Assembly: GCF_000016665.1 (NCBI RefSeq)
Contig: NC_009523.1
Coordinates: 5,517,501 to 5,581,500, forward strand
DNA length: 64,000 nucleotides
From: Roseiflexus sp. RS-1
GTDB taxonomy: Bacteria; Chloroflexota; Chloroflexia; Chloroflexales; Roseiflexaceae
Reading direction: 5' to 3'
Part shown: one piece after another, positions 18,289 through 56,131 of the stretch
Numbering within the stretch: the first letter of the stretch is position 1
Layout of the letters: the number at the start of each line of letters is the position of its first letter
Notes under the pieces: model-generated
Seen by the model: only the letters and a program-made list of their open reading frames with translations
The model's database searches: none
Told to the model about the DNA's origin: nothing
Position numbers and translations under genes: made by a program

Positions 18289-18321
18289 AGGTTCTGGCGA
18301 CCCGTCTGCGCTTTGCTGAGC

Positions 18322-21019: not shown

Positions 21020-21287
21020 AACGTTCAACGTTCCAACGTTCAACCTTCAACCTTCAAACCTTCAACCGTCCAGCGCCCAACGTTCAACCTTCAAACCTTC
21101 AAACCTTCAAACCTTCAACCTTCAACCTTCAACCTTCAACCTTCAACCCTTCAACCTTCAACCCTTCAACCTTCAACCTTCAACCTTCAACCCTTCAACC
21201 TTCAACCCTTCAACCTTCAACCTTCAACCTTCAACCTTCAACCCTTCAACCCTTCAACCCTTCAACCTTTCAACCCTTCAACCTTCA
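21020..21287 (+). repeat. long TTCAACC heptamer array
   Basis: About 265 bases of CTTCAAC, CTTCAAA and 8-base CCTTCAAC units. The left end of the neighbouring amidotransferase gene lies in it: the stop codon of that gene is made from the repeat. It is separated from the array at 20855-20962 by a 55-base spacer that carries the duplicated segment. Confidence 0.9.
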
Positions 21288-23275
21288 TCCCCCCACACCC
21301 GCAGCCACACCTCCAGGCTGATCCAGCGCCACACCTGGCGCGTATCGCCGCCATGCGCGCACCACTCTTCCACAGCGTGACGCACTACAGGCAGATCAAG
21401 GTACGCGCCGCAGGCAGCCCCATCAGCAAACAGATCGGGACGCGCCGCCAGCAGGTCGCGTTGCCAGGCGTCCTCCGGCGTCTCGAAGCCAACTTTATCA
21501 CTGCGCCAGGCGATAGCGTCCGGCAACAACCCTTCCATCGCCTGCCGATGCACCCATTTTGTCCATCCCCGGCGAATGCGCAGATGCGGTGCGCACTGGA
21601 ACACGAACTCGACCAGACGATGATCGAGGAACGGGACCCGCGCTTCGATGCTGAATGCCATCGAGTTGCGGTCTTCATACCGTAAGAGGTGCGGCAGGCT
21701 GCTTGCCATCACCGCATCGCGCAAATGATGGTCGAGCGTTTCCTGTTCGCACCAGGAAGGAATATCTACCAGATCGACGCGACGGTATGCATCGGCGAAA
21801 TCGGGGCGCAGAACAGTTGATCGCGCGCGCAGGAATTGTCGCCCGACATACGCCAGTTCGACAGCAGGCGCTGGCAGGGCGAAGATCAGCGCATTGCGCA
21901 GCAGCGGCAATGCTGGCTGACCGCTGCGCGCACTCAGGGCAACGACTTCGGCAAGCAACGTGGCGCCACGTCCTCCGCGCAGCAGATCGCCGAGATAGCG
22001 CGCATAGGGACGGTAGCCCGCCAGCAACTCATCGGCGCCCTGCCCATCGAGCAGCACGGTGACACCGCGTTCACGCGCCAACCCCATGACGCACCACTGC
22101 GCGAAAATGCTGGTCGATTGAAACGGCTCGTCCTGGTGCCATGTCAACCGCTCAAGATCCGCCAGCAAACGCTCAACCGTGGGAACCACAAAGTGACCGT
22201 CGGCAGTCGTGGCGCGCAACACGCGCTCGATGTGGCGTCGCTCGTTATAGCGCCCCTCACTCTCATACACCGCGCTGAACGTCTTCTGCCGCTCTCCGAT
22301 CTGCGCTGCCGAGAGTCCGTCCTGGCTCATGAGGCGGTTGACAGCGCAAACGATAGATGACGAGTCGATGCCGCCGCTTAAGCAGGTGCCGATCGCGACA
22401 TCGGAGCGCAGTTCGAGCCGCACAGCATCGATGAAGAGGTCGCGGTACGCTGCAATGATCGTTTCCGGCGCCTGGACGCGATGGTGACCATCCGGCAGGG
22501 CGACGTCGTAGTAGCGACGCGGCGCGGCAGGCGATCCATCCGTAATCCGCATGCAATGCCCTGGCGGGAGCGAACGCACCCCGGCAAAAAAGGTCGCACC
22601 GTGCTGTGGATCGGGCAGGCGTCCATCGACAAGGAACTGATAGATGGCAAGCGGCTCCGGGGTGAAAGGCAGCGCGTGTCGCCCGACCAGCGCCTTGATC
22701 TCGGAGGCGAAGGCGAAGGTCTGACCGGTTGCCACATAGTAGAGCGGCTTGACCCCAAAGCGGTCGCGCGCCAGAAAGAGTTCGCGCCGCTCACGATCCC
22801 AGATCGCAAACGCCCACATCCCGTTCAGACGATCCAGGCATGCCTCGTCCCACTGCGCATATGCCGCCAGAATGACCTCCGTATCGCCGCCGCTGCGAAA
22901 GCGATGCCCAAGGCGCTGCAACTCTTCGCGCAGTTCGATGTAGTTGTAAATCTCGCCGTTGAACACGATCCAGAAGCGCCCATCGGCGCTGACCATTGGT
23001 TGATGACCGGCGGGCGACAGGTCGAGGATCGCAAGGCGGCGAAACCCGAACGCCAGACTACACCCTATGCCATGCGCCTGATCGAGCGGCGGCAGCGCCA
23101 GACGCGGATCGGTCTCGGCGCCAGCATACGGCGCACACCACCCTTCCTCTGGCGACGCCAGCAGATACCCCTCATCGTCCGGTCCACGATGACGCAACCG
23201 GCTCGTCGCGGTTTGCACTGCCGCCAGATCGACCGGTCGCCCGTCACGATGCCAGATGCCGTAGATGCCGCACAT
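21278..23275 (-). CDS. asparagine synthase-like glutamine amidotransferase
   Basis: A 665-residue AsnB-type enzyme. The N-terminal Ntn glutaminase domain starts at Cys2 (MCGIYGIW), with RRLAILDLSPAGHQP and FNGEIYNY. The C-terminal synthetase domain has the ATP pyrophosphatase loop LSGGIDSSS. It hydrolyses glutamine and moves ammonia to an adenylated carboxylate. In surface-polysaccharide clusters such paralogues (for example WbpS) are thought to amidate uronic-acid sugars, a likely job here because the locus encodes a di-N-acetyl uronic acid pathway. The start must be 23275 to expose Cys2. That ATG touches a heptamer array directly, and the stop codon lies in another array. Confidence 0.88.
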   Translation of the reverse strand: MCGIYGIWHRDGRPVDLAAVQTATSRLRHRGPDDEGYLLASPEEGWCAPYAGAETDPRLALPPLDQAHGIGCSLAFGFRRLAILDLSPAGHQPMVSADGRFWIVFNGEIYNYIELREELQRLGHRFRSGGDTEVILAAYAQWDEACLDRLNGMWAFAIWDRERRELFLARDRFGVKPLYYVATGQTFAFASEIKALVGRHALPFTPEPLAIYQFLVDGRLPDPQHGATFFAGVRSLPPGHCMRITDGSPAAPRRYYDVALPDGHHRVQAPETIIAAYRDLFIDAVRLELRSDVAIGTCLSGGIDSSSIVCAVNRLMSQDGLSAAQIGERQKTFSAVYESEGRYNERRHIERVLRATTADGHFVVPTVERLLADLERLTWHQDEPFQSTSIFAQWCVMGLARERGVTVLLDGQGADELLAGYRPYARYLGDLLRGGRGATLLAEVVALSARSGQPALPLLRNALIFALPAPAVELAYVGRQFLRARSTVLRPDFADAYRRVDLVDIPSWCEQETLDHHLRDAVMASSLPHLLRYEDRNSMAFSIEARVPFLDHRLVEFVFQCAPHLRIRRGWTKWVHRQAMEGLLPDAIAWRSDKVGFETPEDAWQRDLLAARPDLFADGAACGAYLDLPVVRHAVEEWCAHGGDTRQVWRWISLEVWLRVWGDEG

Positions 23276-30270: not shown

Positions 30271-31143
30271 CTACGTCTCGCCCCGCAATCGGCGCAGTTC
30301 CGCCTCAAGGTCACGCATGCGCGCTTCGAGCTCTGCTCGCGCCGCTGCTTCTCGCCGCGCTTGTTCCTCCGCCTCGGCACGGGCGCGCGCTTCGACCTCC
30401 GTGTGCGCCGCCGTTTCCCGTTGCGCACGCTCCTCAGCCGCTGCTGCCTGCCGCACTGCCGTCGCATAGTCACCGAACGCCGCGCCGCGCTCGTCGTAGC
30501 ACACCACGTGATCCCCTGCCACCCCCAGCCACAGATTGGCGATGGCCAGATGCACCCGCCCCGCCGCGTCCGGCGCGCGCCGCCGATAGACCCCTCCCGC
30601 CAGCCGGTAGTCCAGCAACCGCACCCGCCGCGCCCCGCCCCGCCCGATGCGGTCGACAATCACATATTGCGCCACCCCCGCCCGCGCGTCGTGCGCCACC
30701 TTCCGCTTCAGGTCGTTCACCCGCGTCTCCGGCGACGTGATCTCGATAATCAGCGCCGGGCGCGCCCCCTCGACCGCCACGTCGAACGTGCTCCAGTCCT
30801 GGCGTTCGGCGATGCCGGGGATGACCATCACATCCGGCCCGTGCGGGCGCAGGTCGGGGACGTCCCACGCGATGCGCACGTCGCTGAGCACAATCGCTGC
30901 GCCGGACGCCTCCAGCCGTGCGCGCAGCACGGCGGTGAGGTACATCCGGTCGGTTTCGTGACGGTCGCTGTGCACGATGAAATCTCCCACGTCCGGGTGC
31001 AGCACGTCGTCGAGGGTCAGCGGAACCTGTTCGAGATGCTGGGGGTCGTCGGGCGTCGGGCGCAACACGTAGCGCCACCCGTAGCGGAAGGGGTCGTCTG
31101 CGGGCGCGATAGGCGGTGATGGCTTGGCGGTAGTTTGCGTCAC
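30271..31143 (-). CDS. Uma2 family PD-(D/E)xK nuclease-like protein
   Basis: A 290-residue protein of the Uma2/DUF820 family, which has a restriction-endonuclease-like fold and is greatly expanded in Chloroflexota and Cyanobacteria; its biological role is not settled. The core has GPDVMVIPG (catalytic D), ALIIEITSPETR (E) and NDLKRKVAHD (K), then QYVIVD. The last 65 residues are a Glu/Arg/Ala-rich coiled coil with many 'AEAEEQARREA'-like units. The GTG at 31143 has a GGGAGG box about eight bases upstream and is preferred to an ATG at 31164. It is only distantly related to the six tandem copies at 47-52 kb. Confidence 0.85.
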   Translation of the reverse strand: MTQTTAKPSPPIAPADDPFRYGWRYVLRPTPDDPQHLEQVPLTLDDVLHPDVGDFIVHSDRHETDRMYLTAVLRARLEASGAAIVLSDVRIAWDVPDLRPHGPDVMVIPGIAERQDWSTFDVAVEGARPALIIEITSPETRVNDLKRKVAHDARAGVAQYVIVDRIGRGGARRVRLLDYRLAGGVYRRRAPDAAGRVHLAIANLWLGVAGDHVVCYDERGAAFGDYATAVRQAAAAEERAQRETAAHTEVEARARAEAEEQARREAAARAELEARMRDLEAELRRLRGET

Positions 31144-45189: not shown

Positions 45190-47094
45190 TTACAGATACG
45201 GTTTGTAACGCTCCCCCCACACTCCGAACAAGAGCAACGCCCACAGGCGCTTCCCGTGGTTGATCCGACCGCTGTCGTGCTCGGTCAGCAAGCGAGCAAT
45301 CGCCTCAGGACGGAACCATCTGTGCAGCACGGGATTGTCCAGCAGTCGTTCACGCGCCCATGCGCGCAACTCGCCGCGCAACCATTGCCCCACCGGGACG
45401 CTGAATCCCTGTTTGCCGCGCGCTGCAATAGCGGGCGGCAGCTTGTCGCCGAAAGCGGCTTTGAGCAACCATTTTGTTTGCCTGCCGCGCACCTTGAAGC
45501 GCTCCGGCAGCCGCGCCGTCCATTCGACCCACCAGTCATCAAGAAATGGTGCACGCACCTCAACGGCATGCGCCATGCTCATGCGGTCGGTCTTTGGTAG
45601 CAGATCGCCCGCCAGATAGGTGACATGATCGGCGTAGAGCGTCCGATCCAGGCGATTTGCAGCATGCGCCTCGTCGTAGGCAGTGGCGATGACATCTGCC
45701 GTATCGATATGCGCAAATGCATTGCGCCATTGGTCGGTATAGAGCGCCAGTTTTGCTTCGTGGCTGAAGTACGAACCCCAGCGCACCAGCGACGCTTTGG
45801 GGTTCGTCGCCGACCACTGCGCCAGGCGTTTCAGTCCGGTAATGGGGCTGCGATCCTCCGGTATCCACGCCGGATCGGGCAGTATGCCGACCGCTGCTGG
45901 CACGGCTCGCCGGGTGATCCACGCTGGCAGCGCTGCGTATGGTCGCAGCAACCCATCGAGCGCGTAGCGCTGATACCCCGCCAGCGTCTCATCGCCGCCA
46001 TCGCCGCACAGCGCCACAGTCACATGCTTCCGCGTCTGACGCGACAACTCAAACAATGGCAATGCCGCCGGGTCTGCCAGCGGTTCGTCACAGGCGTCGA
46101 TCACTGCTTCAATCGTTGCTGTCAGATCGGCGGGACGGAAGATGAACTCGTGATGGTCGGTCGCATACCGTTCAGCGACAGCGCGCGCGTACTGCGTCTC
46201 GGAGAAGCGCGGCTCACTGAAGCCTATCGAGAAGGTTTTGACCGGCGCGCTCGTCTGTTCTGCCATCAGCGCCACGATGATCGATGAGTCGATGCCGCCG
46301 CTCAGAAAGGCGCCCAGCGGCACCTCGGCGATCAGGCGCCGCGCAACCGCTTCGCGGAGCAGGATGCGCGCCTGCTCAACCACTTCGCCGTCGCTCAAAC
46401 GCAGTTTCGGCTCGAAGTCGAGTTGCCACCAGCGTTCGATGCGCGGCGGGTGATTGGCTTCAAAGACCAGTTTGTGCGCAGCCGGCAACTGAAAGATTCC
46501 GGCAAACATGGTCAGCGGGTCTGGCGTGTACTGGAGCGTCAGGTAGTGGTGCAGCGCCAGCGGCTCGACCCGTCGCTCGACCCAGGGCGCAGTCAGGATA
46601 CACTTCGCTTCCGATCCCCACAGCAACCCGTGCGCCGGATGATGCCACCAGTAGAGCGGTTTCTTCCCCATGCGGTCGCGCGCGAGCAGCAACCGTTGCC
46701 TGCGCCGATCCCATAGCGCAAATGCAAACATCCCATTGAAGCGCAGTAGCGCATCATCACCCCACTCTTCGTAGCCGTGAACGATAACTTCGGTATCGCT
46801 GGAGGTGGCGAAGCGATGCCCGCGCTGCTCCAGATCGCGGCGCAGTTCCTGAAAATTGAAGATTTCGCCATTGAACGTGACCAGCACCTGCCCATCTTCA
46901 CTGCTGATCGGTTGATCCCCGCCGCGCACATCGATGATTGCCAGGCGTCGCATCGCCATGCCGAACCCGCCATCGATATAGAACCCGTCGCTGTCGGGAC
47001 CGCGATGAATGATGCGCGCGTTCATGCGCCGCAGCAGGTCGGCATCGACCGGTTGGGCAAGATCGGGTGACGCTATGCCGCAGATGCCGCACAT
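45190..47094 (-). CDS. asparagine synthase-like glutamine amidotransferase (second copy)
   Basis: A 634-residue AsnB-type enzyme. Cys2 starts the glutaminase domain (MCGICGIASPDLAQ), with RRLAIIDVRGGDQP and FNGEIFNFQ. The synthetase domain has LGAFLSGGIDSSIIVALM and LCGDGGDETLAGYQRYA. Reaction and role are as proposed for the copy at 21-23 kb: amidation of a carboxylate, either free aspartate or a uronic acid in the glycan. The two copies are not close relatives, so one may be the housekeeping enzyme. The next gene downstream is a GT4, which favours a glycan role here. Confidence 0.9.
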   Translation of the reverse strand: MCGICGIASPDLAQPVDADLLRRMNARIIHRGPDSDGFYIDGGFGMAMRRLAIIDVRGGDQPISSEDGQVLVTFNGEIFNFQELRRDLEQRGHRFATSSDTEVIVHGYEEWGDDALLRFNGMFAFALWDRRRQRLLLARDRMGKKPLYWWHHPAHGLLWGSEAKCILTAPWVERRVEPLALHHYLTLQYTPDPLTMFAGIFQLPAAHKLVFEANHPPRIERWWQLDFEPKLRLSDGEVVEQARILLREAVARRLIAEVPLGAFLSGGIDSSIIVALMAEQTSAPVKTFSIGFSEPRFSETQYARAVAERYATDHHEFIFRPADLTATIEAVIDACDEPLADPAALPLFELSRQTRKHVTVALCGDGGDETLAGYQRYALDGLLRPYAALPAWITRRAVPAAVGILPDPAWIPEDRSPITGLKRLAQWSATNPKASLVRWGSYFSHEAKLALYTDQWRNAFAHIDTADVIATAYDEAHAANRLDRTLYADHVTYLAGDLLPKTDRMSMAHAVEVRAPFLDDWWVEWTARLPERFKVRGRQTKWLLKAAFGDKLPPAIAARGKQGFSVPVGQWLRGELRAWARERLLDNPVLHRWFRPEAIARLLTEHDSGRINHGKRLWALLLFGVWGERYKPYL

Positions 47095-47105: not shown

Positions 47106-47855
47106 CTATGTCGCTTCGGCGTCCGGGTCAATCCCCAGCGCGCGCAACCGCGCTGCCAGGCGCTCCGCCCGCGCTCGCTCTGCCTCCGCCCGCTGCCGCT
47201 CCGCTTCCGCCAGTTCCGCCCCGGTCGGGATGACGTTCCCCTCTCGATCACACCAGCGCAGCCAGACCGCTTTCACCCCTTCGTATTCTCCCTCCCACAA
47301 CCGCACCCCCAGACCGATGTCCTCCAGCCAGCCCCCCGCACACGGCGCATACGTCCGCCCGCGCAACTCGTAGCACCGCAGCACCTCCTCCCCCAGCACC
47401 CGCTGCGGGTCGAACACCACGTAGTACGCCACCCCCAATTGCGCGTAGCGCTCCCGCTTGGACCCCAGTTCGCCCCCCTCCCGGTTCGACACGATCTCCA
47501 CCACCGCGTCCGGCGGCTTGCCGAAGCGCCAGATGAAGTACGACCGGTTCGGCTTGGGCCACAGGTCCGCCGCCAGTTCCACGTCCAGGCTCACCAGCGC
47601 GTCCGGCACGATGGCGGGCTGTCCCTCGCCGTAGAACACCCCCACATTCGCCGCCGCCAGCAGCGGTCGTCCCAGGCGTTCCGCCATTCGTGCGCTGTAG
47701 AGCGGCTCGGTCAGCAGGCGCTGCTGCTTTTCGGAGAAGAAATTGTCCACCGGCGCATCATCCTCGGTCACGAACTGGTCATAGTCCGGCAGATACTCCG
47801 CCGGCGGCGGTTTGGTCGGGTCCACCTCCGGCGCGGTCGCCGCAGTCACGGTCAT
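47106..47855 (-). CDS. Uma2 family nuclease-like protein, tandem copy 1 (2 heptads)
   Basis: A 249-residue member of a six-gene tandem array. The conserved part carries the PD-(D/E)xK signs: a PD pair in QPAIVPDALVSL, E in DAVVEIVSN and K in GSKRERYAQ, then AYYVVFDPQ. After TGAEL come two 7-residue units (AEAERQR, AEAERAR), then the shared end AERLAARLRALGIDPDAE. Its N-terminus lacks one residue found in copies 2-5, and its 53-base upstream spacer differs from theirs, so it is an outer member of the array. The ATG at 47855 has GGAGG seven bases upstream. The cellular role of Uma2 proteins is unsettled. Confidence 0.88.
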   Translation of the reverse strand: MTVTAATAPEVDPTKPPPAEYLPDYDQFVTEDDAPVDNFFSEKQQRLLTEPLYSARMAERLGRPLLAAANVGVFYGEGQPAIVPDALVSLDVELAADLWPKPNRSYFIWRFGKPPDAVVEIVSNREGGELGSKRERYAQLGVAYYVVFDPQRVLGEEVLRCYELRGRTYAPCAGGWLEDIGLGVRLWEGEYEGVKAVWLRWCDREGNVIPTGAELAEAERQRAEAERARAERLAARLRALGIDPDAEAT

Positions 47856-47908
47856 GCTCGTCCCTCCTTCCACGCGCGCCCTGCCCTGCTTCAGACGCAG
47901 ATTGCCGC

Positions 47909-48766
47909 CTATATCCCTTCGGCGTCCGGGTCAATCCCCAGCGCGCGCAACCGCGCCGCCAGGCGCTCCGCCCGCTGCCGCTCCGCTTCCGCGCGCTGGC
48001 GGGCTTCCTCCGCGCGCCGCTGCTCTTCCTCCGCCCGCGCCCGCTCCGCTTCCGCGCGCTGGCGGGCTTCCTCCGCGCGCCGCTGCTCTTCCTCCGCCCG
48101 CTGCCGCTCCGCTTCCGCCAGTTCCGCCCCGGTCGGGATCACGTTCCCCTCCTGATCACACCAGCGCAGCCAGACCGTCCTCACCCCTTCGTACTCCCCC
48201 TCCCATAACCGCACCCCCAATCCTACATCTCCCAGCCAGCCCCCCGCGCACGGCGCATACGTCCGCCCGCGCAACTCGTAGCACCGCAGCACCTCCTCCC
48301 CCAGCAACCGCTGCGGGTCGAACACCACATAGTACGCCACCCCCAATTGCGCGTAGCGCTCCCGCTTGGACCCCAGTTCGCCCCCCTCCCGGTTCGACAC
48401 GATCTCCACCACCGCGTCCGGCGGCTTGCCGAAGCGCCAGATGAAGTACGACCGGTTCGGCTTGGGCCACAGGTCCGCCGCCAGTTCCACGTCCAGGCTC
48501 ACCAGCGCGTCCGGCACGATGGCGGGCTGTCCCTCGCCGTAGAACACCCCCACATTCGCCGCCGCCAGCAGCGGTCGTCCCAGGCGTTCCGCCATTCGTG
48601 CGCTGTAGAGCGGCTCGGTCAGCAGGCGCTGCTGCTTTTCGGAGAAGAAATTGTCCACCGGCGCATCATCCTCGGTCACGAACTGGTCATAGTCCGGCAG
48701 ATACTCCGCCGGCGGCGGTTTGGTCGGGTCCACCTCCGGCGCGGTCGCCGGAATAGTCACCGTCAT
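47909..48766 (-). CDS. Uma2 family nuclease-like protein, tandem copy 2 (7 heptads)
   Basis: A 285-residue copy. Residues 1-205 are nearly identical to the other copies: catalytic-type D86, E121 and K134 lie in the PD-(D/E)xK pattern. Seven 7-residue units follow TGAEL (mixtures of AEAERQR, AEEEQRR and AEEARQR), predicted to form a coiled coil. The start has the AAGGAGGGACGAGG leader common to the array. The upstream spacer of 59 bases is the first of four that look identical. Confidence 0.9.
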   Translation of the reverse strand: MTVTIPATAPEVDPTKPPPAEYLPDYDQFVTEDDAPVDNFFSEKQQRLLTEPLYSARMAERLGRPLLAAANVGVFYGEGQPAIVPDALVSLDVELAADLWPKPNRSYFIWRFGKPPDAVVEIVSNREGGELGSKRERYAQLGVAYYVVFDPQRLLGEEVLRCYELRGRTYAPCAGGWLGDVGLGVRLWEGEYEGVRTVWLRWCDQEGNVIPTGAELAEAERQRAEEEQRRAEEARQRAEAERARAEEEQRRAEEARQRAEAERQRAERLAARLRALGIDPDAEGI

Positions 48767-48825
48767 CCTCGTCCCTCCTTCCGCCCGTTTCTCGCTCTGC
48801 TTCGGGCACAGATCGCCGCATCCGC

Positions 48826-49557
48826 CTACAGCGCTTCGGCGTCCGGGTCAATCCCCAGTGCGCGCAACCGCGCCGCCAGGCGCTCCGCTCGCGCTCGCTC
48901 CGCTTCCGCCAGTTCCGCCCCGGTCGGGATCACGTTCCCCTCCTGATCACACCAGCGCAGCCAGACCGCTTTCACCCCTTCGTATTCCCCCTCCCACAAC
49001 CGCACCCCCAGACCGATGTCCTCCAGCCAGCCCCCCGCGCACGGCGCATACGTCCGTCCGCGCAACTCGTAGCACCGCAGCACCTCCTCCCCCAGCAACC
49101 GCTGCGGGTCGAACACCACATAGTACGCCACCCCCAATTGCGCGTAGCGCTCCCGCTTGGACCCCAGTTCGCCCCCCTCCCGGTTCGACACGATCTCCAC
49201 CACCGCGTCCGGCGGCTTGCCGAAGCGCCAGATGAAGTACGACCGGTTCGGCTTGGGCCACAGGTCCGCCGCCAGTTCCACGTCCAGGCTCACCAGCGCG
49301 TCCGGCACGATGGCGGGCTGTCCCTCGCCGTAGAACACCCCCACATTCGCCGCCGCCAGCAGCGGTCGTCCCAGGCGTTCCGCCATTCGTGCGCTGTAGA
49401 GCGGCTCGGTCAGCAGGCGCTGCTGCTTTTCGGAGAAGAAATTGTCCACCGGCGCATCATCCTCGGTCACGAACTGGTCATAGTCCGGCAGATACTCCGC
49501 CGGCGGCGGTTTGGTCGGGTCCACCTCCGGCGCGGTCGCCGGAATAGTCACCGTCAT
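48826..49557 (-). CDS. Uma2 family nuclease-like protein, tandem copy 3 (1 heptad)
   Basis: A 243-residue copy and the shortest of the array. It keeps the whole PD-(D/E)xK core, with one 7-residue unit (AEAERAR) before the shared C-terminal cap AERLAARLRALG. It shows that the coiled-coil extension is dispensable for keeping the frame. Same leader and 59-base spacers as its neighbours. Confidence 0.9.
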   Translation of the reverse strand: MTVTIPATAPEVDPTKPPPAEYLPDYDQFVTEDDAPVDNFFSEKQQRLLTEPLYSARMAERLGRPLLAAANVGVFYGEGQPAIVPDALVSLDVELAADLWPKPNRSYFIWRFGKPPDAVVEIVSNREGGELGSKRERYAQLGVAYYVVFDPQRLLGEEVLRCYELRGRTYAPCAGGWLEDIGLGVRLWEGEYEGVKAVWLRWCDQEGNVIPTGAELAEAERARAERLAARLRALGIDPDAEAL

Positions 49558-49616
49558 CCTCGTCCCTCCTTCCGCCCGTTTCTCGCTCTGCTTCGGGCAC
49601 AGATCGCCGCATCCGC

Positions 49617-50411
49617 CTACAGCGCTTCGGCGTCCGGATCAATCCCCAGCGCGCGCAACCGCGCCGCCAGGCGCTCCGCTCGCGCTCGCTCCGCCTCGGC
49701 GCGCTGCTGCTCCGCCTCCGCCCGCGCTCGCTCTGCCTCCGCCCGCTGCCGCTCCGCTTCCGCCAGTTCCGCCCCGGTCGGGATGACGTTCCCTTCCTGG
49801 TCACACCAGCGCAGCCAGACCGCCGTCACCCCTTCGTATTCTCCTTCCCATAACCGCACCCCCAGACCGATGTCCCCCAGCCAGTTCTCCGCGCACGGCG
49901 CATACGTCCGTCCGCGCAACTCGTAGCACCGCAGCGCCTCCTCCCCCAGCAACCGCTGCGGGTCGAACACCACGTAGTACGCCACCCCCAATTGCGCGTA
50001 GCGCTCCCGCTTGGACCCCAGTTCGCCCCCCTCCCGGTTCGACACAATCTCCACCACCGCGTCCGGCGGCTTGCCGAAGCGCCAGATGAAGTACGACCGG
50101 TTCGCCTTGGGCCACAGGTCCGCCGCCAGTTCCACGTCCAGGCTCACCAGCGCGTCCGGCACGATGGCGGGCTGTCCCTCGCCGTAGAACACTCCCACGT
50201 TCGCCGCCGCCAGCAGCGGTCGTCCCAGGCGTTCCGCCACCCGTGCGCTGTAGAGCGGCTCGGTCAGCAGGCGCTGCTGCTTTTCGGAGAAGAAATTGTC
50301 CACCGGCGCATCATCCTCGGTCACGAACTGGTCATAGTCCGGCAGATACTCCGCCGGCGGCGGTTTGGTCGGGTCCACCTCCGGCGCGGTCGCCGGAATA
50401 GTCACCGTCAT
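49617..50411 (-). CDS. Uma2 family nuclease-like protein, tandem copy 4 (4 heptads)
   Basis: A 264-residue copy with four 7-residue units (AEAERQR, AEAERAR, AEAEQQR, AEAERAR). The core differs at a few points from copies 2 and 3 (WPKANRS for WPKPNRS, and CAENWLGD for CAGGWLGD), variants shared with copy 6, so segments appear to have been exchanged between copies. Catalytic residues are intact. Confidence 0.9.
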   Translation of the reverse strand: MTVTIPATAPEVDPTKPPPAEYLPDYDQFVTEDDAPVDNFFSEKQQRLLTEPLYSARVAERLGRPLLAAANVGVFYGEGQPAIVPDALVSLDVELAADLWPKANRSYFIWRFGKPPDAVVEIVSNREGGELGSKRERYAQLGVAYYVVFDPQRLLGEEALRCYELRGRTYAPCAENWLGDIGLGVRLWEGEYEGVTAVWLRWCDQEGNVIPTGAELAEAERQRAEAERARAEAEQQRAEAERARAERLAARLRALGIDPDAEAL

Positions 50412-50470
50412 CCTCGTCCCTCCTTCCGCCCGTTTCTCGCTCTGCTTCGGGCACAGATCGCCGCATCCGC

Positions 50471-51475
50471 CTACAGCGCTTCGGCGTCCGGATCAATCCC
50501 CAGCGCGCGCAACCGCGCCGCCAGGCGCTCCGCTCGCGCCCGCTCCGCTGCGGCCTGCTGGCGGGCTTCTTCCGCGCGCCGCTGCGCTTCCTTCACTCGT
50601 TGCCGCTCCGCCTCGGCGCGCCGCTGCTCTTCTTCTGCTCGCTGCCGCTCTGCTGCGGCCTGCTGGCGGGCTTCCTCCGCGCGCCGCTGCGCTTCCTCCG
50701 CCCGCGCTCGCTCCGCCTCGGCGCGCCGCTGCGCTTCCTCCGCCCGCGCTCGCTCCGCTTCTGCGCGCCGCTGCTCCTCCTCCGCCCGTTGCCGCTCCGC
50801 TTCCGCCCGCGCTCGCTCCGCTTCCGCCAGTTCCGCCCCGGTCGGGATGACGTTTCCCTCTCGATCACACCAGCGCAGCCAGACCGTCCTCACCCCTTCG
50901 TACTCCCCCTCCCACAACCGCACCCCCAGACCGATATCCTCCAGCCAGCCCCCCGTGCACGGCGCATACGTCCGCCCGCGCAACTCGTAGCACCGCAGCA
51001 TCTCCTCCCCCAGCACCCGCTGCGGGTCGAACACCACGTAGTACGCTACTCCCAATTGCGCGTACCGCTCCCGCTTGGACCCCAGTTCGCCCCCCTCCCG
51101 GTTCGACACAATCTCCACCACCGCGTCCGGCGGCTTGCCGAAGCGCCAGATGAAGTACGACCGGTTCGGCTTGGGCCACAGGTCCGCCGCCAGTTCCACG
51201 TCCAGGCTCACCAGCGCGTCCGGCACGATGGCGGGCTGCCCCTCGCCGTAGAACACCCCCACATTCGCCGCCGCCAGCAGCGGTCGTCCCAGGCGTTCCG
51301 CCATTCGTGCGCTGTAGAGCGGCTCGGTCAGCAGGCGCTGCTGCTTTTCGGAGAAGAAATTGTCCACCGGCGCATCATCCTCGGTCACGAACTGGTCATA
51401 GTCCGGCAGATACTCCGCCGGCGGCGGTTTGGTCGGGTCCACCTCCGGCGCGGTCGCCGGAATAGTCACCGTCAT
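50471..51475 (-). CDS. Uma2 family nuclease-like protein, tandem copy 5 (14 heptads)
   Basis: A 334-residue copy and the longest, with fourteen 7-residue units. The array includes variant units AEEARQQ, AAAERQR and VKEAQRR, and parts of it repeat as two- or three-unit blocks, pointing to stepwise slippage. The predicted coiled coil of about 100 residues could drive oligomerisation. The PD-(D/E)xK core is intact and the leader and spacer are as in the other copies. Confidence 0.9.
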   Translation of the reverse strand: MTVTIPATAPEVDPTKPPPAEYLPDYDQFVTEDDAPVDNFFSEKQQRLLTEPLYSARMAERLGRPLLAAANVGVFYGEGQPAIVPDALVSLDVELAADLWPKPNRSYFIWRFGKPPDAVVEIVSNREGGELGSKRERYAQLGVAYYVVFDPQRVLGEEMLRCYELRGRTYAPCTGGWLEDIGLGVRLWEGEYEGVRTVWLRWCDREGNVIPTGAELAEAERARAEAERQRAEEEQRRAEAERARAEEAQRRAEAERARAEEAQRRAEEARQQAAAERQRAEEEQRRAEAERQRVKEAQRRAEEARQQAAAERARAERLAARLRALGIDPDAEAL

Positions 51476-51534
51476 CCTCGTCCCTCCTTCCGCCCGTTTC
51501 TCGCTCTGCTTCGGGCACAGATCGCCGCATCCGC

Positions 51535-52431
51535 CTACAGCGCTTCGGCGTCCGGGTCAATCCCCAGTGCGCGCAACCGCGCCGCCAGGCGCTCCGCTCG
51601 CACCCGCTCCTCCTCCGCCCGTTGCCGCTCCGCTGCGGCCTGCTGGCGGGCTTCCTCCGCGCGCCGCTGCTCTTCCTCCGCCCGTTGCCGCTCCGCTGCG
51701 GCCTGCTGGCGGGCTTCCTCCGCGCGCCGCTGCTCTTCCTCCGCCCGTTGCCGCTCCGCTTCCGCCCGCGCTCGCTCCGCCGCCGCCAGTTCCGCCCCGG
51801 TCGGGATGACGTTCCCCTCTCGATCACACCAGCGCAGCCAGACCGCCTTCACCCCTTCGTATTCCCCTTCCCATAACCGCACCCCCAGACCGATGTCCCC
51901 CAGCCAGTTCTCCGCACACGGCGCATACGTCCGCCCGCGCAACTCGTAGCACCGCAGCGCCTCCTCCCCCAGCAACCGCTGCGGGTCGAACACCACGTAG
52001 TACGCCACCCCCAATTGCGCGTAGCGCTCCCGCTTGGACCCCAGTTCGCCCCCTTCGCGGTTCGACACAATCTCCACCACTGCGTCCGGCGGCTTGCCGA
52101 AGCGCCAGATGAAGTACGACCGGTTCGCCTTGGGCCACAGGTCCGCCGCCAGCGCCACGTCCAGGCTCACCAGCGCATCCGGCACAATCGCAGGCTGCCC
52201 CTCGCCGTAGAACACCCCCACATTCGCCGCCGCCAGCAGCGGTCGTCCCAGGCGTTCCGCCATTCGTGCGCTGTAGAGCGGCTCGGTCAGCAGGCGCTGC
52301 TGCTTTTCGGAGAAGAAATTGTCCACCGGCGCATCATCCTCGGTCACGAACTGGTCATAGTCCGGCAGAAACTCCGCCGGTGGCGGTTTGGTCGGGTCTA
52401 CCTCCGGCGCGGTCGCCGCAGTTATGGTCAT
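51535..52431 (-). CDS. Uma2 family nuclease-like protein, tandem copy 6 (9 heptads)
   Basis: A 298-residue copy at the promoter-proximal end of the array. The N-terminus (MTITAATAPEVDP) is one residue shorter than in copies 2-5 and resembles copy 1, so copies 1 and 6 may be the older ends of the array. Nine 7-residue units end in AEEERVR. The core variants WPKANRS and CAENWLGD match copy 4. Its first 77 bases overlap, in another frame, the end of the upstream GT4 gene. Confidence 0.9.
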   Translation of the reverse strand: MTITAATAPEVDPTKPPPAEFLPDYDQFVTEDDAPVDNFFSEKQQRLLTEPLYSARMAERLGRPLLAAANVGVFYGEGQPAIVPDALVSLDVALAADLWPKANRSYFIWRFGKPPDAVVEIVSNREGGELGSKRERYAQLGVAYYVVFDPQRLLGEEALRCYELRGRTYAPCAENWLGDIGLGVRLWEGEYEGVKAVWLRWCDREGNVIPTGAELAAAERARAEAERQRAEEEQRRAEEARQQAAAERQRAEEEQRRAEEARQQAAAERQRAEEERVRAERLAARLRALGIDPDAEAL

Positions 52432-53635
52432 GCTCGTCCCTCCTCGCCTTATGATCTTGCAGGGATTCTACCACGCACGCCGTTCCGTGGACATCCCGGT
52501 TCAGCATCCGGTCGAAAATCTCCAGATAGCGCGCCGCGACTGCATCCCACGACATCCGCTCCGCGCGACGCCGTGACGCTGCCCCCATCTGCCGCACCAC
52601 CTCACGGTTCGCGGCAAGATACGCCAGGTGCTGCGCAAGGGTCTCGACATCACCCCACGCAAAGGTCAACCCATTCTCCCCCTCCTGCACCAGTTCCGCA
52701 GTGCCTCCGGTGCGGGTGACCACCAGCGGCAACCCGGCCGCCATTGCTTCGAGCGTCGCCACACTCATCCCCTCGTTGTACGACGGCAGCACAAAGACAT
52801 CAGCCGCAGCATAATGGTCGGCAATCCGTTCGCGCGGCACGTACCCGGCAAACGTCACCTGATCGGCGATCCCCAGACGATCGGCTTCGGCGCGATATGC
52901 CTGCGCTGCATCACCAGTCCCGACGAATTCGACCGTCGCGGTCACACCGGCATCGCGCAGACGACGCAATGCCGCCAGCAGATGGCGTTGCCCTTTGCGC
53001 TCGATCAGGCGCGCCACGCAGATGATCCGCAGCGGACCATTGTTGCGCGGCGCCGCCATCCGAAACGCGCGCACATCAACGCCATTCGGCGCCAGCACTG
53101 GCGCGATAGACGGATCGACCCGGCGGATCATCGCAGCTTCTCCGTCACACTTCGCCACAACGAGCGTCGCATTTCGCCACACTGATCGAATGATCGGCGT
53201 CAGTATCGGATAGAGCCGCGCGTAGCGCTCCTCGAAACCGGGGATATCCGGTCCGCTCACCCGCACCAGATACGGCAATCCGCAGAGACGGCGCAACGCC
53301 AGCGCGACCGAACCGGCAGGTACAGCGCTCCAGGCAAAGCAGAAGTCATACGGCAGCACCCGATGGCGCGCCAGCGCCGCTGGCAATGCCAGCGCCGCAT
53401 ACGTGAGCAACTCACGGTTCGATGAGTGGTGGATATCGTGGTTATCGACCGGAACCTTGTACAGGCGGATGCGTTCGCTGAACTGCTCCCGTTCTGGCGT
53501 GCGTCCCAGAGCTGCTGTGAACAGGTCGATCTCCAGATCGGCAACATGCGCCAACCGCTGCAACAGCGCCTGATTGACCGAGCCTGTTCCACCGCCGAGC
53601 GGCGGGAACTCATTGTTGAGCATCAGAATACGCAC
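52355..53635 (-). CDS. glycosyltransferase family 4 with run-on C-terminus
   Basis: A 426-residue GT-B enzyme starting at GTG (RILMLNNEFPPLGGGTGSVNQAL). APNGVDVRAF, CVARLIERKGQRHLLAALRRL and SYNEGMSVATLEAMAAGLPLVVTRTGG are GT4 landmarks. The normal fold ends near YLEIFDRMLNR. The last 25-30 residues (from about DHKARRDEHDHNCG) are read from the leader and 5' end of Uma2 copy 6 in another frame. The native stop therefore seems to have been lost when the Uma2 array arrived. The enzyme is probably still functional, since the tail lies beyond the catalytic fold. Confidence 0.87.
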   Translation of the reverse strand: MRILMLNNEFPPLGGGTGSVNQALLQRLAHVADLEIDLFTAALGRTPEREQFSERIRLYKVPVDNHDIHHSSNRELLTYAALALPAALARHRVLPYDFCFAWSAVPAGSVALALRRLCGLPYLVRVSGPDIPGFEERYARLYPILTPIIRSVWRNATLVVAKCDGEAAMIRRVDPSIAPVLAPNGVDVRAFRMAAPRNNGPLRIICVARLIERKGQRHLLAALRRLRDAGVTATVEFVGTGDAAQAYRAEADRLGIADQVTFAGYVPRERIADHYAAADVFVLPSYNEGMSVATLEAMAAGLPLVVTRTGGTAELVQEGENGLTFAWGDVETLAQHLAYLAANREVVRQMGAASRRRAERMSWDAVAARYLEIFDRMLNRDVHGTACVVESLQDHKARRDEHDHNCGDRAGGRPDQTATGGVSAGL

Positions 53636-53653
53636 AACTTCGCCTCTTACACC

Positions 53654-53702
53654 GTTCAACCTGCAACCCGCAACCTGCAACCTTCAACCTTCAACCCTCA
53701 AC
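53654..53702 (+). repeat. heptanucleotide array, TTCAACC family (7 units)
   Basis: Seven perfect 7-base units (GTTCAAC, CTGCAAC, CCGCAAC, CTTCAAC, CCTCAAC) fill the gap between the GT4 and GT2 genes. The stop codon of the GT2 gene is formed by the end of the array. Confidence 0.9.
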
Positions 53703-54792
53703 CCATCCTCCCCGTCACACGTCGAACCACATACAGCGGGCGTTGTTTCACTTCTTCATAAATACGCCCCACATATTCACCAATGACGCCGATGGTGATC
53801 AGTTGAATGCCTGCCAGGAAGAAAATAGCCACGATCAACGTTGGAAATCCAGGCGGCGTCAACCCAAACGCCAGGCGCTGCACGGTATAGAGGATCGCCA
53901 GTGCAATCGACACGGCAGAAACAATGAAGCCAAGAATGGTGATGATCCGCAGCGGCACAAAACTGAACGCCACGATTCCGTCGATCGCCAGATAGGTCAA
54001 TCGGCTCAACGTATACTTCGGCTTTCCGGCATAACGTCCCTGCCGATCATACGGCAACCCGATCTGCTTCATCCCCACCCAACTGCGAATGCCGCGCACA
54101 AACCGGTTGCGTTCCGGCATGGCGGTCAACACATCCACCACCCGCCGGTCCATCAGGCAAAAATCGCCAGCATCGAGGGGAATATCAATATTGGCAATCC
54201 ATCGCAACAGGCGGTAGAACAGCGCATATGCCGCCCGCAGCAGCAGATTCTCCTTCCGGCTCGCGCGCACCGCGTAGACCACATCGTACCCCTCGCGCCA
54301 GCGTGCGATGAACTCCGGCAGCACCTCCGGCGGATCCTGCAAATCCGAATCCATCACAATCACGCCATCGCCGCGCGCATAGTCCAGCCCGGCGCTGATT
54401 GCGATCTGATGCCCGAAATTGCGCGCCAGTTCGACAACGACAACGCGCGGGTCGCGTTCTGCAAGGGCGTACAACACATCACGGCTCCCGTCGCGGCTCC
54501 CATCATCGACAAACACCAGTTCATACGAGTGGTTCCCGGCATCGAGCACGCGTACCAACCGTTCGTAGAGCGCAGGCAGGTTTTCGCGCTCGTTGAAGAC
54601 TGGCAAGACAACAGAGAGATGTGGACGCGACGGCGGCATGACGCCATTGTCGGAATGATCTATGAGCAACCCTGCCAGCCGGCGACAGAACGCCAGCGCC
54701 GCCTGAGGATCGTCGGTGGGAATCGCCATACGTGTATCGCGCGTCTCGTGCGTGCGCGATGCCTGTCCGACGCTGACATCACCTTCGGACAT
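53698..54792 (-). CDS. GT2 polyprenyl-phosphate glycosyltransferase with membrane anchor
   Basis: A 364-residue GtrB/DPM1-like enzyme. After an N-terminal polar extension of about 60 residues come LSVVLPVFNERENLPALYE, FVDDGSRDGSRD, ARNFGHQIAISAGLDYARGD and the metal-site DSDLQDPPEV. RFVRGIRSWVGMKQIGLPYDR and two C-terminal helices are typical of enzymes that make polyprenyl-phosphate-linked sugars for GT-C transferases. The ATG at 54792 has a GGAGGT box about nine bases upstream. The frame is open further to 54876, where it would overlap the upstream GT4 gene. Confidence 0.9.
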   Translation of the reverse strand: MSEGDVSVGQASRTHETRDTRMAIPTDDPQAALAFCRRLAGLLIDHSDNGVMPPSRPHLSVVLPVFNERENLPALYERLVRVLDAGNHSYELVFVDDGSRDGSRDVLYALAERDPRVVVVELARNFGHQIAISAGLDYARGDGVIVMDSDLQDPPEVLPEFIARWREGYDVVYAVRASRKENLLLRAAYALFYRLLRWIANIDIPLDAGDFCLMDRRVVDVLTAMPERNRFVRGIRSWVGMKQIGLPYDRQGRYAGKPKYTLSRLTYLAIDGIVAFSFVPLRIITILGFIVSAVSIALAILYTVQRLAFGLTPPGFPTLIVAIFFLAGIQLITIGVIGEYVGRIYEEVKQRPLYVVRRVTGRMG

Positions 54793-54844: not shown

Positions 54845-56131
54845 TCAGGGTATGCGATTGATCGACATGGAGTCAAATTGATAATAAGACTGATTCACCG
54901 CCTGCGCATACGCCCGTTCAGCGATTGGGGCAAGCAGGTCCCAGGAGTACTGCCGGGCAGCGTACTGCGCACCAATGCCCAGGCGTTGTCGCAGGTCTGC
55001 ATCGCCGATCAGTCGCAGCACCGCCTCCGCCAGCGCCCCAGGATTCTCCGGCGGCACAAGCCAGCCACTGACCCCGTGCTCCAGATATTCGGCTGCCTGC
55101 CCCACCCGACTGGCGACAATCGGGAGACCGGCGCCCATCAATTCGAGCAGTTTTGCCAGACCGCGTGCACGGTTGATCAGCGTATCCCGCATCGGCATAA
55201 GCGCGACATCGGCTTCTGCCAGCGTCGCCGGGATGTGATCCGGCATCAACCAGCCACGATAATCGACGAAGGAAGCGAGACCGGTACGTTGAACCAGTCG
55301 CAGCAACTCGTTCTCCTCGCCACGTTCGCCCTTGCCGACGATAATCAGGCGCACATTCGGGCAACGGGCGGCAACCCCGACCAGCGCCGCAACGACCTCG
55401 CGCACATCGAGTTCCCAGAAGCGGGTGTAGAGGAGGAGGTTGAAGGTTGAAGGTTGAGGGTTGAAGGTTGAGGGTTGAAGGTTGAGGGTTGAAGGTTGAG
55501 GGTTGAAGGTTGAGGGTTGAAGGTTGAGGGTTGAAGGTTGAAGGTTGAAGGTTGAGGGTTGAAGGTTGAGGGTTGAGGGTCTGACGCCGTTGGGGAGGTA
55601 GAAGACGCGATCAGGCGCGATGCCCATGCTCCACACCAGCGTCTCGAGTGCGCGACTGGCAACGGTGATTGCGTCAGCGCGACGCAGCAGATCGCGCTCC
55701 TGCCAGGCAAATAGCCGCTTCGCCGCTGATGGATAGGGGAGCAGATCATTCCAGCCGCCGGGACCCTCCCAATCATCGGTATCCACCACCAGCGGCAGCG
55801 CCGGACGAAGGTGATGCAGCGCCAGCGCCGCCAGACCAGCGTACCCTTTCGGTTTGAAGAGATGCACAACATCAGGACGTTGCCGCAGCGTCGCTTGCAG
55901 CAGCGCCAGCGTCTGCTGCGCCACGCCTGGCGCTCGCGGCGCGGCAGTATGGATCACCGGCACTCCCTCATATTCGACGCACGTTGCAGCATCATCGGGG
56001 TTATGCACCGGCGGCGCAACGATGACCACCTGATGTCCGCGTCGCACGAGCGCCTGCGCCAGCGGCAACATACGCGCCGCCAGCGTCCCTTTCGGGCGGA
56101 TGCCAAATGGAGCAAGCATCACAATCCGCAT
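54845..56131 (-). CDS. glycosyltransferase family 4 containing a heptamer array in frame
   Basis: A 428-residue GT-B enzyme. RIVMLAPFGIRPKGTLAARMLPLAQALVRRG opens the acceptor domain, VHLFKPKGYAGL and VVDTDDWEGPGGWND follow. The hinge region YLPNGV runs straight into about 47 residues coded by 20 heptanucleotide units, read as PSTLNLQ and PSTFNLQ heptapeptides, before resuming at LLLYTRFWELDVREVVAAL. LMGAGLPIVASRVG is the donor region. The inserted tract lies between the two GT-B domains, where a flexible loop may be tolerated. It is the first gene of the minus-strand locus. Confidence 0.85.
   Translation of the reverse strand: MRIVMLAPFGIRPKGTLAARMLPLAQALVRRGHQVVIVAPPVHNPDDAATCVEYEGVPVIHTAAPRAPGVAQQTLALLQATLRQRPDVVHLFKPKGYAGLAALALHHLRPALPLVVDTDDWEGPGGWNDLLPYPSAAKRLFAWQERDLLRRADAITVASRALETLVWSMGIAPDRVFYLPNGVRPSTLNLQPSTFNLQPSTLNLQPSTFNPQPSTLNLQPSTFNPQPSTFNLLLYTRFWELDVREVVAALVGVAARCPNVRLIIVGKGERGEENELLRLVQRTGLASFVDYRGWLMPDHIPATLAEADVALMPMRDTLINRARGLAKLLELMGAGLPIVASRVGQAAEYLEHGVSGWLVPPENPGALAEAVLRLIGDADLRQRLGIGAQYAARQYSWDLLAPIAERAYAQAVNQSYYQFDSMSINRIP
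55438..55577 (-). repeat. heptanucleotide array inside a coding sequence (20 units)
   Basis: Twenty perfect 7-base units (plus strand GGTTGAA or GGTTGAG) lie within the GT4 gene. Three units make 21 bases, so the protein shows a seven-residue period. Confidence 0.95.

What the first reader, a model, noticed from the sequence alone, without database searches (positions are those of the whole stretch)
47106..52431. Six tandem Uma2 genes that differ mainly by coiled-coil heptad number (2, 7, 1, 4, 14, 9)
The six proteins share a near-identical PD-(D/E)xK core and C-terminal cap. Their lengths (249, 285, 243, 264, 334 and 298 residues) are explained by whole numbers of 7-residue units between TGAEL and AERLAARL. 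Spacers between copies 2-3, 3-4, 4-5 and 5-6 are 59 bases and look identical. This is a 21-base coding minisatellite varying across a young gene array, like a diversity-generating cassette for oligomer size or partner choice. All cores are intact, which argues that the copies are kept for use.
Basis: partly seen in the sequence, partly recalled or inferred. Interest (0 to 1): 0.8.

Follow-up and report, generated by a model that had tools for sequence, protein, structure and literature searches.

The report
Six nuclease copies, different tail lengths
A hot-spring bacterium carries six side-by-side copies of a predicted DNA-cutting enzyme gene (Uma2) that differ mainly in how many 7-residue units make up a rod-like tail; the pattern is real and the enzymes look intact, but such length changes also occur in lone copies, so this is a vivid case of a general habit of the gene family rather than a new kind of system.

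Summary
Cores are 93-99% identical and under purifying selection (dN/dS 0.11-0.28), and the predicted catalytic residues are intact in all six. Three related Roseiflexus assemblies show one Uma2 at the same place. Divergence between copies (dS 0.04-0.17) is below the neighbours' dS to the nearest relative (0.22), so the array is younger than that split or has been homogenised.

Two interpretations fail or weaken. The tail is not a classical coiled coil: it is a salt-bridged Ala/Glu/Arg helix without a hydrophobic seam, ending in a conserved leucine-bearing cap. Nor is the variation special to the array: single-copy Uma2 orthologs and other tandem Uma2 groups also change by 7 or 14 residues.

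Most likely: tandem duplication plus a 21-bp coding minisatellite that sets rod length between nuclease and cap. Whether length matters, for example by Rpn-like length-matched pairing, is untested; an Rpn-like internal antitoxin is not supported.

The parts
51535..52431 (-). Uma2 copy c1 (first in transcription order), 298 aa, 9 heptads
   Evidence: ORF and heptad split; Pfam Uma2 E 1.6e-15
50471..51475 (-). Uma2 copy c2, 334 aa, 14 heptads
49617..50411 (-). Uma2 copy c3, 264 aa, 4 heptads
48826..49557 (-). Uma2 copy c4, 243 aa, 1 heptad
47909..48766 (-). Uma2 copy c5, 285 aa, 7 heptads; modelled by AlphaFold2
47106..47855 (-). Uma2 copy c6, 249 aa, 2 heptads
51598..51786 (-). c1 heptad block (9 x 21 bp; a 63-bp higher-order unit twice)
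50534..50827 (-). c2 heptad block (14 x 21 bp)
49680..49763 (-). c3 heptad block (4 x 21 bp)
48889..48909 (-). c4 heptad block (1 x 21 bp)
47972..48118 (-). c5 heptad block (7 x 21 bp; two near-copies of a 63-bp unit)
47169..47210 (-). c6 heptad block (2 x 21 bp)
51476..51534 (-). 59-bp spacer c1-c2, with a GGAAGGAGGG ribosome-binding-like sequence before the next ATG
   Evidence: identical to the next three spacers
50412..50470 (-). 59-bp spacer c2-c3
49558..49616 (-). 59-bp spacer c3-c4
48767..48825 (-). 59-bp spacer c4-c5
47856..47908 (-). 53-bp spacer c5-c6, different sequence
52355..53680 (-). upstream glycosyltransferase (GT4) gene; its frame overlaps the start of c1 by 77 bases
   Evidence: Pfam Glycos_transf_1; syntenic in relatives
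45190..47094 (-). downstream asparagine synthase gene, 11 bases after c6
   Evidence: Pfam Asn_synthase E 4e-100; syntenic in relatives

Best explanation
A single Uma2 gene, which in related Roseiflexus sits between a glycosyltransferase and (directly or one gene away from) an asparagine synthase gene, was duplicated head to tail to six copies in this lineage (or homogenised since an older duplication), probably by unequal crossing-over in the spacer/5' region. Each copy has three modules: a PD-(D/E)xK nuclease-fold core, a rod of 21-bp/7-residue Ala-Glu-Arg repeats that forms one continuous charged helix, and a conserved leucine-bearing cap (AERLAARLRALGIDPD). The rod gains and loses whole 21-, 42- and 63-bp units by slippage or unequal exchange, with or without gene duplication; whole heptads keep frame and roughly the helical phase of the cap. 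The proteins stay under purifying selection. Shown: anatomy, synteny, selection, whole-heptad rule, length change at single-copy loci. Inferred: unequal crossing-over and slippage as the mechanisms, nuclease activity, the rod acting as spacer between nuclease and a cap-mediated contact, and any use of the length differences.
For: Anatomy and whole heptads in all six copies and six orthologs. One Uma2 at the same place in G001 (93% identical), G003 and G004. dS between copies 0.04-0.17 against 0.22-0.23 for neighbouring genes between this genome and G001. c2-c5 have no variable site in the first 120 nt of the gene and identical spacers but 14 variable sites in nt 541-600, as expected if the junction region was recently spread. 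Shared and tandem 21-mers within and between copies, with 63-bp higher-order duplications. dN/dS 0.11-0.28 in cores; pN/pS 0.39 in heptads with Ala at position 1 in 36 of 37. AlphaFold2: nuclease core plus one helix 213-275 with pLDDT about 94-98 over most of it; core aligns to Uma2/DUF820 crystal structures 9y1l, 6okh, 1wdj, 3ot2 at Z 10-13. Opposite-charge i+3/i+4 pairs far above shuffles (55 against 2 like-charge in c2, z 7.1) and no hydrophobic seam. Cap leucines invariant across phyla, and the cap is shared with a Uma2 whose core is only 37% identical.
Against: The recombination test on the six cores is not significant (PHI p 0.22; 0.044 with G001 added), so exchange between copies is inferred from spacers and repeat units, not proven. 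G001, G003 and G004 are draft metagenome assemblies in which a tandem array could collapse, and several relatives have contigs that end inside this gene, so ancestral copy number is uncertain. c1 is diverged enough (dS up to 0.17) that the first duplication may be near the age of the split from G001. The Arg-rich, Ala-containing composition could also oligomerise: de novo AEEERRR repeats aggregate and AEEAKKA dimerises (PMC5347031).
Confidence: 0.72

Rival explanations
1. Length code: heptad number decides which subunits pair, so the six proteins form separate length-matched homo-oligomers, as in the Rpn nucleases, where one extra repeat abolishes inhibition by an unmatched small partner. The array would then be a set of non-cross-reacting nucleases, perhaps anti-phage.
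For: All six lengths differ. Rpn precedent: a nuclease with helix repeats whose number varies between strains, length-matched inhibition, tandem arrays and phage defence (PMC10327210). Cap leucines conserved across phyla. Weak match of the cores to the PADLOC candidate PDC-S03 (E about 1e-5).
Against: Length also drifts at single-copy loci with no sibling to avoid. The rod lacks a hydrophobic seam. No Rpn domain was matched, no internal start is conserved and no stand-alone cap protein was found in the genome.
Confidence: 0.2
2. Neutral length variation: the rod only has to be helical, any heptad number works, and the six lengths are slippage noise on redundant duplicates.
For: No fixed length among orthologs (3, 3, 7, 6, 8, 4). 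Similar changes at single-copy Uma2 genes (2 of 4 ortholog pairs) and in other tandem groups.
Against: Cores, heptad register and cap are all constrained, so the proteins are used; but that does not show that length is used. All six lengths being different at low dS is more change than 2 of 4 pairs at dS about 0.22, though the numbers are too small to test.
Confidence: 0.45
3. Selfish proliferation: Uma2 nucleases promote their own tandem duplication by cutting DNA (hypothesis of Feder and Bujnicki 2005), and the array is one product.
For: 51 Uma2 matches in this genome, several in tandem. The same pattern and hypothesis are published for cyanobacteria (PMC551604). Lineage-specific duplication here and a separate one in G001 C135.
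Against: The locus is conserved in place across Roseiflexus species, and purifying selection over that time suggests a host-level role. I know of no shown nuclease activity for this subfamily.
Confidence: 0.2
4. Rpn-like gene within a gene: an internal start just before the heptads makes a tail-only inhibitor of each full-length protein.
For: c4, c5 and the G001 ortholog have AGGAGG 5 nt before an in-frame GTG exactly at the start of the tail.
Against: The other four copies have GTC there and five more distant orthologs have GTC or CTG; the number of genes with any start plus Shine-Dalgarno sequence near the tail does not exceed synonymous shuffles (4 of 12; null mean 4.0 at 5-base and 2.0 at 6-base match, p 0.61 and 0.11).
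Confidence: 0.05
5. Assembly artefact.
For: Near-identical tandem repeats are classic trouble spots; contigs of relatives break here.
Against: Single-contig genome; every copy has private substitutions and its own length; all frames are intact.
Confidence: 0.05

Closest known systems
Uma2 / COG4636 / DUF820 family (Pfam PF05685)
   Same: Core fold, PD-ExX-K residues, genome-wide proliferation and tandem duplication (PMC551604); cassettes of paralogs, proposed solo toxin (PMC2701414)
   Different: Six-copy array against a reported longest run of four in that paper; long charged heptad tail and cap, which I did not find described ('coiled' does not occur in PMC551604) and which the solved Uma2 structures matched here (146-186 residues) do not contain
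Rpn nucleases (PF04754, COG5464)
   Same: Works-like candidate: a nuclease with a helical tail whose repeat number varies, tandem arrays, horizontal spread (PMC10327210)
   Different: Different protein family; 7-residue charged repeats instead of 4-residue repeats with one hydrophobic residue; no conserved internal start; no stand-alone tail protein found
EcoR124I / EcoR124II type I restriction enzymes (TAEL repeat number)
   Same: A repeat whose copy number changes spacing between parts (cited in PMC10327210)
   Different: Multi-subunit restriction enzyme; two or three 4-residue repeats, not one to fourteen heptads
Single alpha-helix (SAH) domains, e.g. myosin-6 and AEEEXXX designs
   Same: Heptads rich in Glu/Arg with i+3/i+4 salt bridges and no hydrophobic seam (PMC5347031)
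   Different: Almost no Lys and much Ala here; Arg-rich designs aggregated and AEEAKKA dimerised, so a monomeric state is uncertain

Membership tests
Uma2 (PF05685) | Sequence match above the curated cut-off | tested here: met
   All six copies 55.9-57.6 bits against cut-off 27
Uma2 (PF05685) | PD-ExX-K active-site pattern | tested here: met
   P84 D85, E120, S123, K133 (c1 numbering) invariant in all copies and in homologs from other phyla
Uma2 (PF05685) | PD-(D/E)xK fold as in solved Uma2/DUF820 structures | tested here: met
   AlphaFold2 model (pTM 0.68) aligns to 9y1l, 6okh, 1wdj, 3ot2 at Z 10.3-12.8
Uma2 (PF05685) | Nuclease activity | not testable with these tools
   Needs purified protein
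Rpn toxin-antitoxin nucleases | Rpn (PF04754) domain | tested here: not met
   Pfam scan of all six reports only Uma2 at E <= 0.001
Rpn toxin-antitoxin nucleases | Internally translated tail protein | tested here: inconclusive
   Internal GTG plus SD at the tail start only in c4, c5 and G001; not above the synonymous-shuffle null. Translation itself was not tested
Rpn toxin-antitoxin nucleases | Repeat number varies in the tail helix | tested here: met
   1 to 14 heptads in copies, 3 to 8 in orthologs
Single alpha-helix domain | Charged, i+3/i+4 salt bridges, no hydrophobic seam | tested here: met
   35/0, 55/2 and 34/0 attractive/repulsive pairs in c1, c2, c5; z 5.8-7.1; at most one L/I/V/M/F/Y/W residue per rod
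Single alpha-helix domain | Monomeric and helical in solution | not testable with these tools
   Needs AUC/CD; related Arg-rich designs were oligomeric (PMC5347031)
Classical coiled coil | Hydrophobic a/d seam along the heptads | tested here: not met
   Only Ala at position 1 (36 of 37) and variably at 2, 3, 4 and 6; one Val per c1 or c2 rod. An Ala-seam coil is not excluded

The most novel reading that the evidence does not exclude
The six copies form a length-coded set of nuclease subunits: each pairs only with partners of equal rod length, so adding or losing 21 bp instantly creates a new, non-cross-reacting enzyme in one tandem locus.
Probability: 0.13. Interest if true: 0.8.

Novelty: new variant of a known kind. 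Interest (0 to 1): 0.42.

Why it matters
Uma2 is a huge, functionally unassigned nuclease family. A set of six natural isoforms that share a core and differ mainly in rod length from 1 to 14 heptads is a ready-made experiment for asking what the tail does and whether repeat number sets partner choice, as shown for Rpn. It also warns that such heptads should not be called coiled coil by default.

Tried and rejected
Internal start before the tail (Rpn-like): present in c4, c5 and G001 only, not enriched over synonymous shuffles. Stand-alone cap protein in the genome: none found at this sensitivity; the query is low in complexity, so known Uma2 tails such as the one at genome position 1327481 were also missed. 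Viral contigs: no relative found. Plasmids: only distant cyanobacterial Uma2, 29-36% identity. PDB by single sequence: no Uma2 hit; by profile: 9y1l at E 0.005 and 6okh at 0.06. Recombination by PHI: not significant for the six copies. PADLOC: weak PDC-S03 matches only. NCBIfam: only sub-threshold charged-helix matches. Promoter and terminator scan: no promoter-like site and no terminator-like site on the coding strand.
Full report
Observation. Six Uma2 genes lie head to tail on the minus strand between an asparagine synthase gene (45190-47094) and a glycosyltransferase gene (52355-53680). In transcription order they are c1 (51535-52431, 9 heptads), c2 (50471-51475, 14), c3 (49617-50411, 4), c4 (48826-49557, 1), c5 (47909-48766, 7) and c6 (47106-47855, 2). 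The residues between TGAEL and AERLAARL are exact multiples of seven in every copy. The four spacers from c1 to c5 are 59 bp and identical; the last is 53 bp and different. Tandem Repeats Finder reports the 21-, 42-, 63- and 105-bp periods independently.

Setting. The genome is one contig of 5,801,598 bases with 51 Uma2 matches. From memory this is the size of Roseiflexus sp. RS-1; no tool named it. In four other Roseiflexus assemblies (G001, G003, G004, G005) the GT4 gene is followed by this Uma2, with GT2 upstream wherever the contig reaches that far. In G001, G003 and G004 one Uma2 lies between GT4 and asparagine synthase, with an extra, membrane-protein-like gene in between in G003 and G004; in G005 the contig ends inside the Uma2 gene. 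The subfamily also occurs in other Chloroflexales and at about 50% identity in assemblies labelled Desulfobacterales, Kapaibacterium, Myxococcales and Deltaproteobacteria, mostly with a charged tail and the same cap motif.

Age and selection. dS between copies is 0.04-0.17. The neighbouring genes differ between this genome and G001 by dS 0.22-0.23, and the Uma2 copies differ from G001 by 0.17-0.27. The array is therefore younger than that split, or has been homogenised since. dN/dS of the cores is 0.11-0.28, and the PD-ExX-K residues are invariant. The region from the spacer through the first 120 nt of c2-c5 has no variation while nt 541-600 has 14 variable sites, which fits recent unequal crossing-over at the junctions; a formal recombination test was not significant. 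One related assembly (G032) has a Uma2 next to asparagine synthase that reads PE in place of PD and is broken off after about 130 residues, so the locus can decay.

The tail. Of 259 heptad residues, 31% are Ala, 29% Glu, 27% Arg and 12% Gln, with two Val and no Leu, Ile or Met. Position 1 is Ala in 36 of 37 heptads and position 7 Arg in 33, through several synonymous codons; overall pN/pS is 0.39. Opposite charges three or four residues apart outnumber like charges 55 to 2 in c2 (z 7.1 against shuffles). AlphaFold2 gives one unbroken helix from 213 to 275 in c5, with pLDDT about 94-98 over most of it. This is the signature of single alpha-helix domains, which are often mistaken for coiled coils; but Arg-rich AEEEXXX designs aggregate and the Ala-rich AEEAKKA design dimerises (PMC5347031), so both a monomeric rod and an Ala-seam dimer are open. 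Leucines appear only in the cap, where L269, L273, L276 and G277 (c5 numbering) are invariant across phyla. The cap peptide is shared with a Uma2 paralog whose core is only 37% identical. I infer a nuclease, a spacer rod and a binding cap.

Is the variation special to the array? No. Orthologs at this locus and elsewhere in the order have 3, 3, 7, 6, 8 and 4 heptads (G001, G003, G004, G033, G032, G030). Among single-copy tailed Uma2 genes with a complete ortholog in G001, two of four pairs differ in tail length (7 and 14 residues) and two do not. A three-gene and a two-gene tandem group elsewhere in this genome, and a G001-specific pair, also differ in tail length, by 14 or 7 residues where the caps are the same. 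Of the 27 other Uma2 genes whose tails I examined in this genome, 16 carry an Ala/Glu/Arg/Gln/Lys-rich run of 21 or more residues. The array is the largest and clearest case of a general process. Whether change is faster inside arrays cannot be judged from these numbers.

Mechanism. Shown: module layout, synteny, selection, whole-heptad rule, length change with and without duplication. Inferred: unequal crossing-over for copy number; slippage or unequal exchange for heptads; the rod as a spacer. The function of the length is open. The nearest worked precedent is Rpn: a nuclease with repeat-number variation in a tail helix, where one extra four-residue repeat abolishes inhibition unless both partners carry it, with tandem arrays and phage defence (PMC10327210). 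I tested the two Rpn features that sequence can show. An internal start at the tail exists in c4, c5 and G001 but not in the other nine genes, and starts with Shine-Dalgarno sequences near the tail are no more common than in synonymous shuffles. A stand-alone tail protein was not found in this genome. So membership in, or a copy of, the Rpn arrangement is not supported; length-matched pairing without an internal antitoxin is not excluded.

What is known. COG4636 was described as a proliferating, horizontally moving nuclease family with tandem duplications, up to four genes in a row in Crocosphaera (PMC551604), and as cassettes of paralogs and a possible solo toxin (PMC2701414). I found no report of the heptad tail or its length variation in the papers searched, but the library holds open-licence papers only. 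Solved Uma2 structures matched here (9y1l, 6okh, 1wdj, 3ot2, 3ijm) cover only the core.

Verdict. It remains a good natural test set for the function of Uma2 tails.

Noticed in passing
window 52355-52431: The GT4 reading frame runs 77 bases into the start of c1. A similar overlap exists in G001, G003 and G005, but no such match in G004.
   Followed up: partly
window 53655-53703; also near 18321, 21079-21298 and 55430-55580: Short tandem 7/14-base repeats (TTCAACC/TGCAACC type), dispersed over the window, with related copies at the equivalent place in G001.
   Followed up: no
window 30571-30966 (minus strand): A further, solitary tailed Uma2 gene (297 aa) of a different subgroup, with its own Ala/Glu/Arg tail.
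   Followed up: partly
L149:1356-3022 (G001 C135): A G001-specific tandem pair of another Uma2 that is single in this genome; the two copies differ by 7 residues in the tail.
   Followed up: partly
L099:500-1350 (G032 C261): The broken Uma2 next to asparagine synthase is followed by two near-copies of a roughly 150-base GC-rich, hairpin-like repeat, possibly a small mobile element that disrupted the gene.
   Followed up: no
L019:3000-5600 (genome 4642587-4645153): Second tandem group of three Uma2 genes with variable tails; the middle copy carries a different cap (LRALGVDPD against ELRRLRGE), suggesting cap exchange.
   Followed up: partly
L087, L090, L093, L096, L097, L101, L102: In several related draft genomes the contig begins or ends inside this Uma2 gene or its tail, which hints at further multi-copy arrays hidden by short-read assembly.
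   Followed up: no
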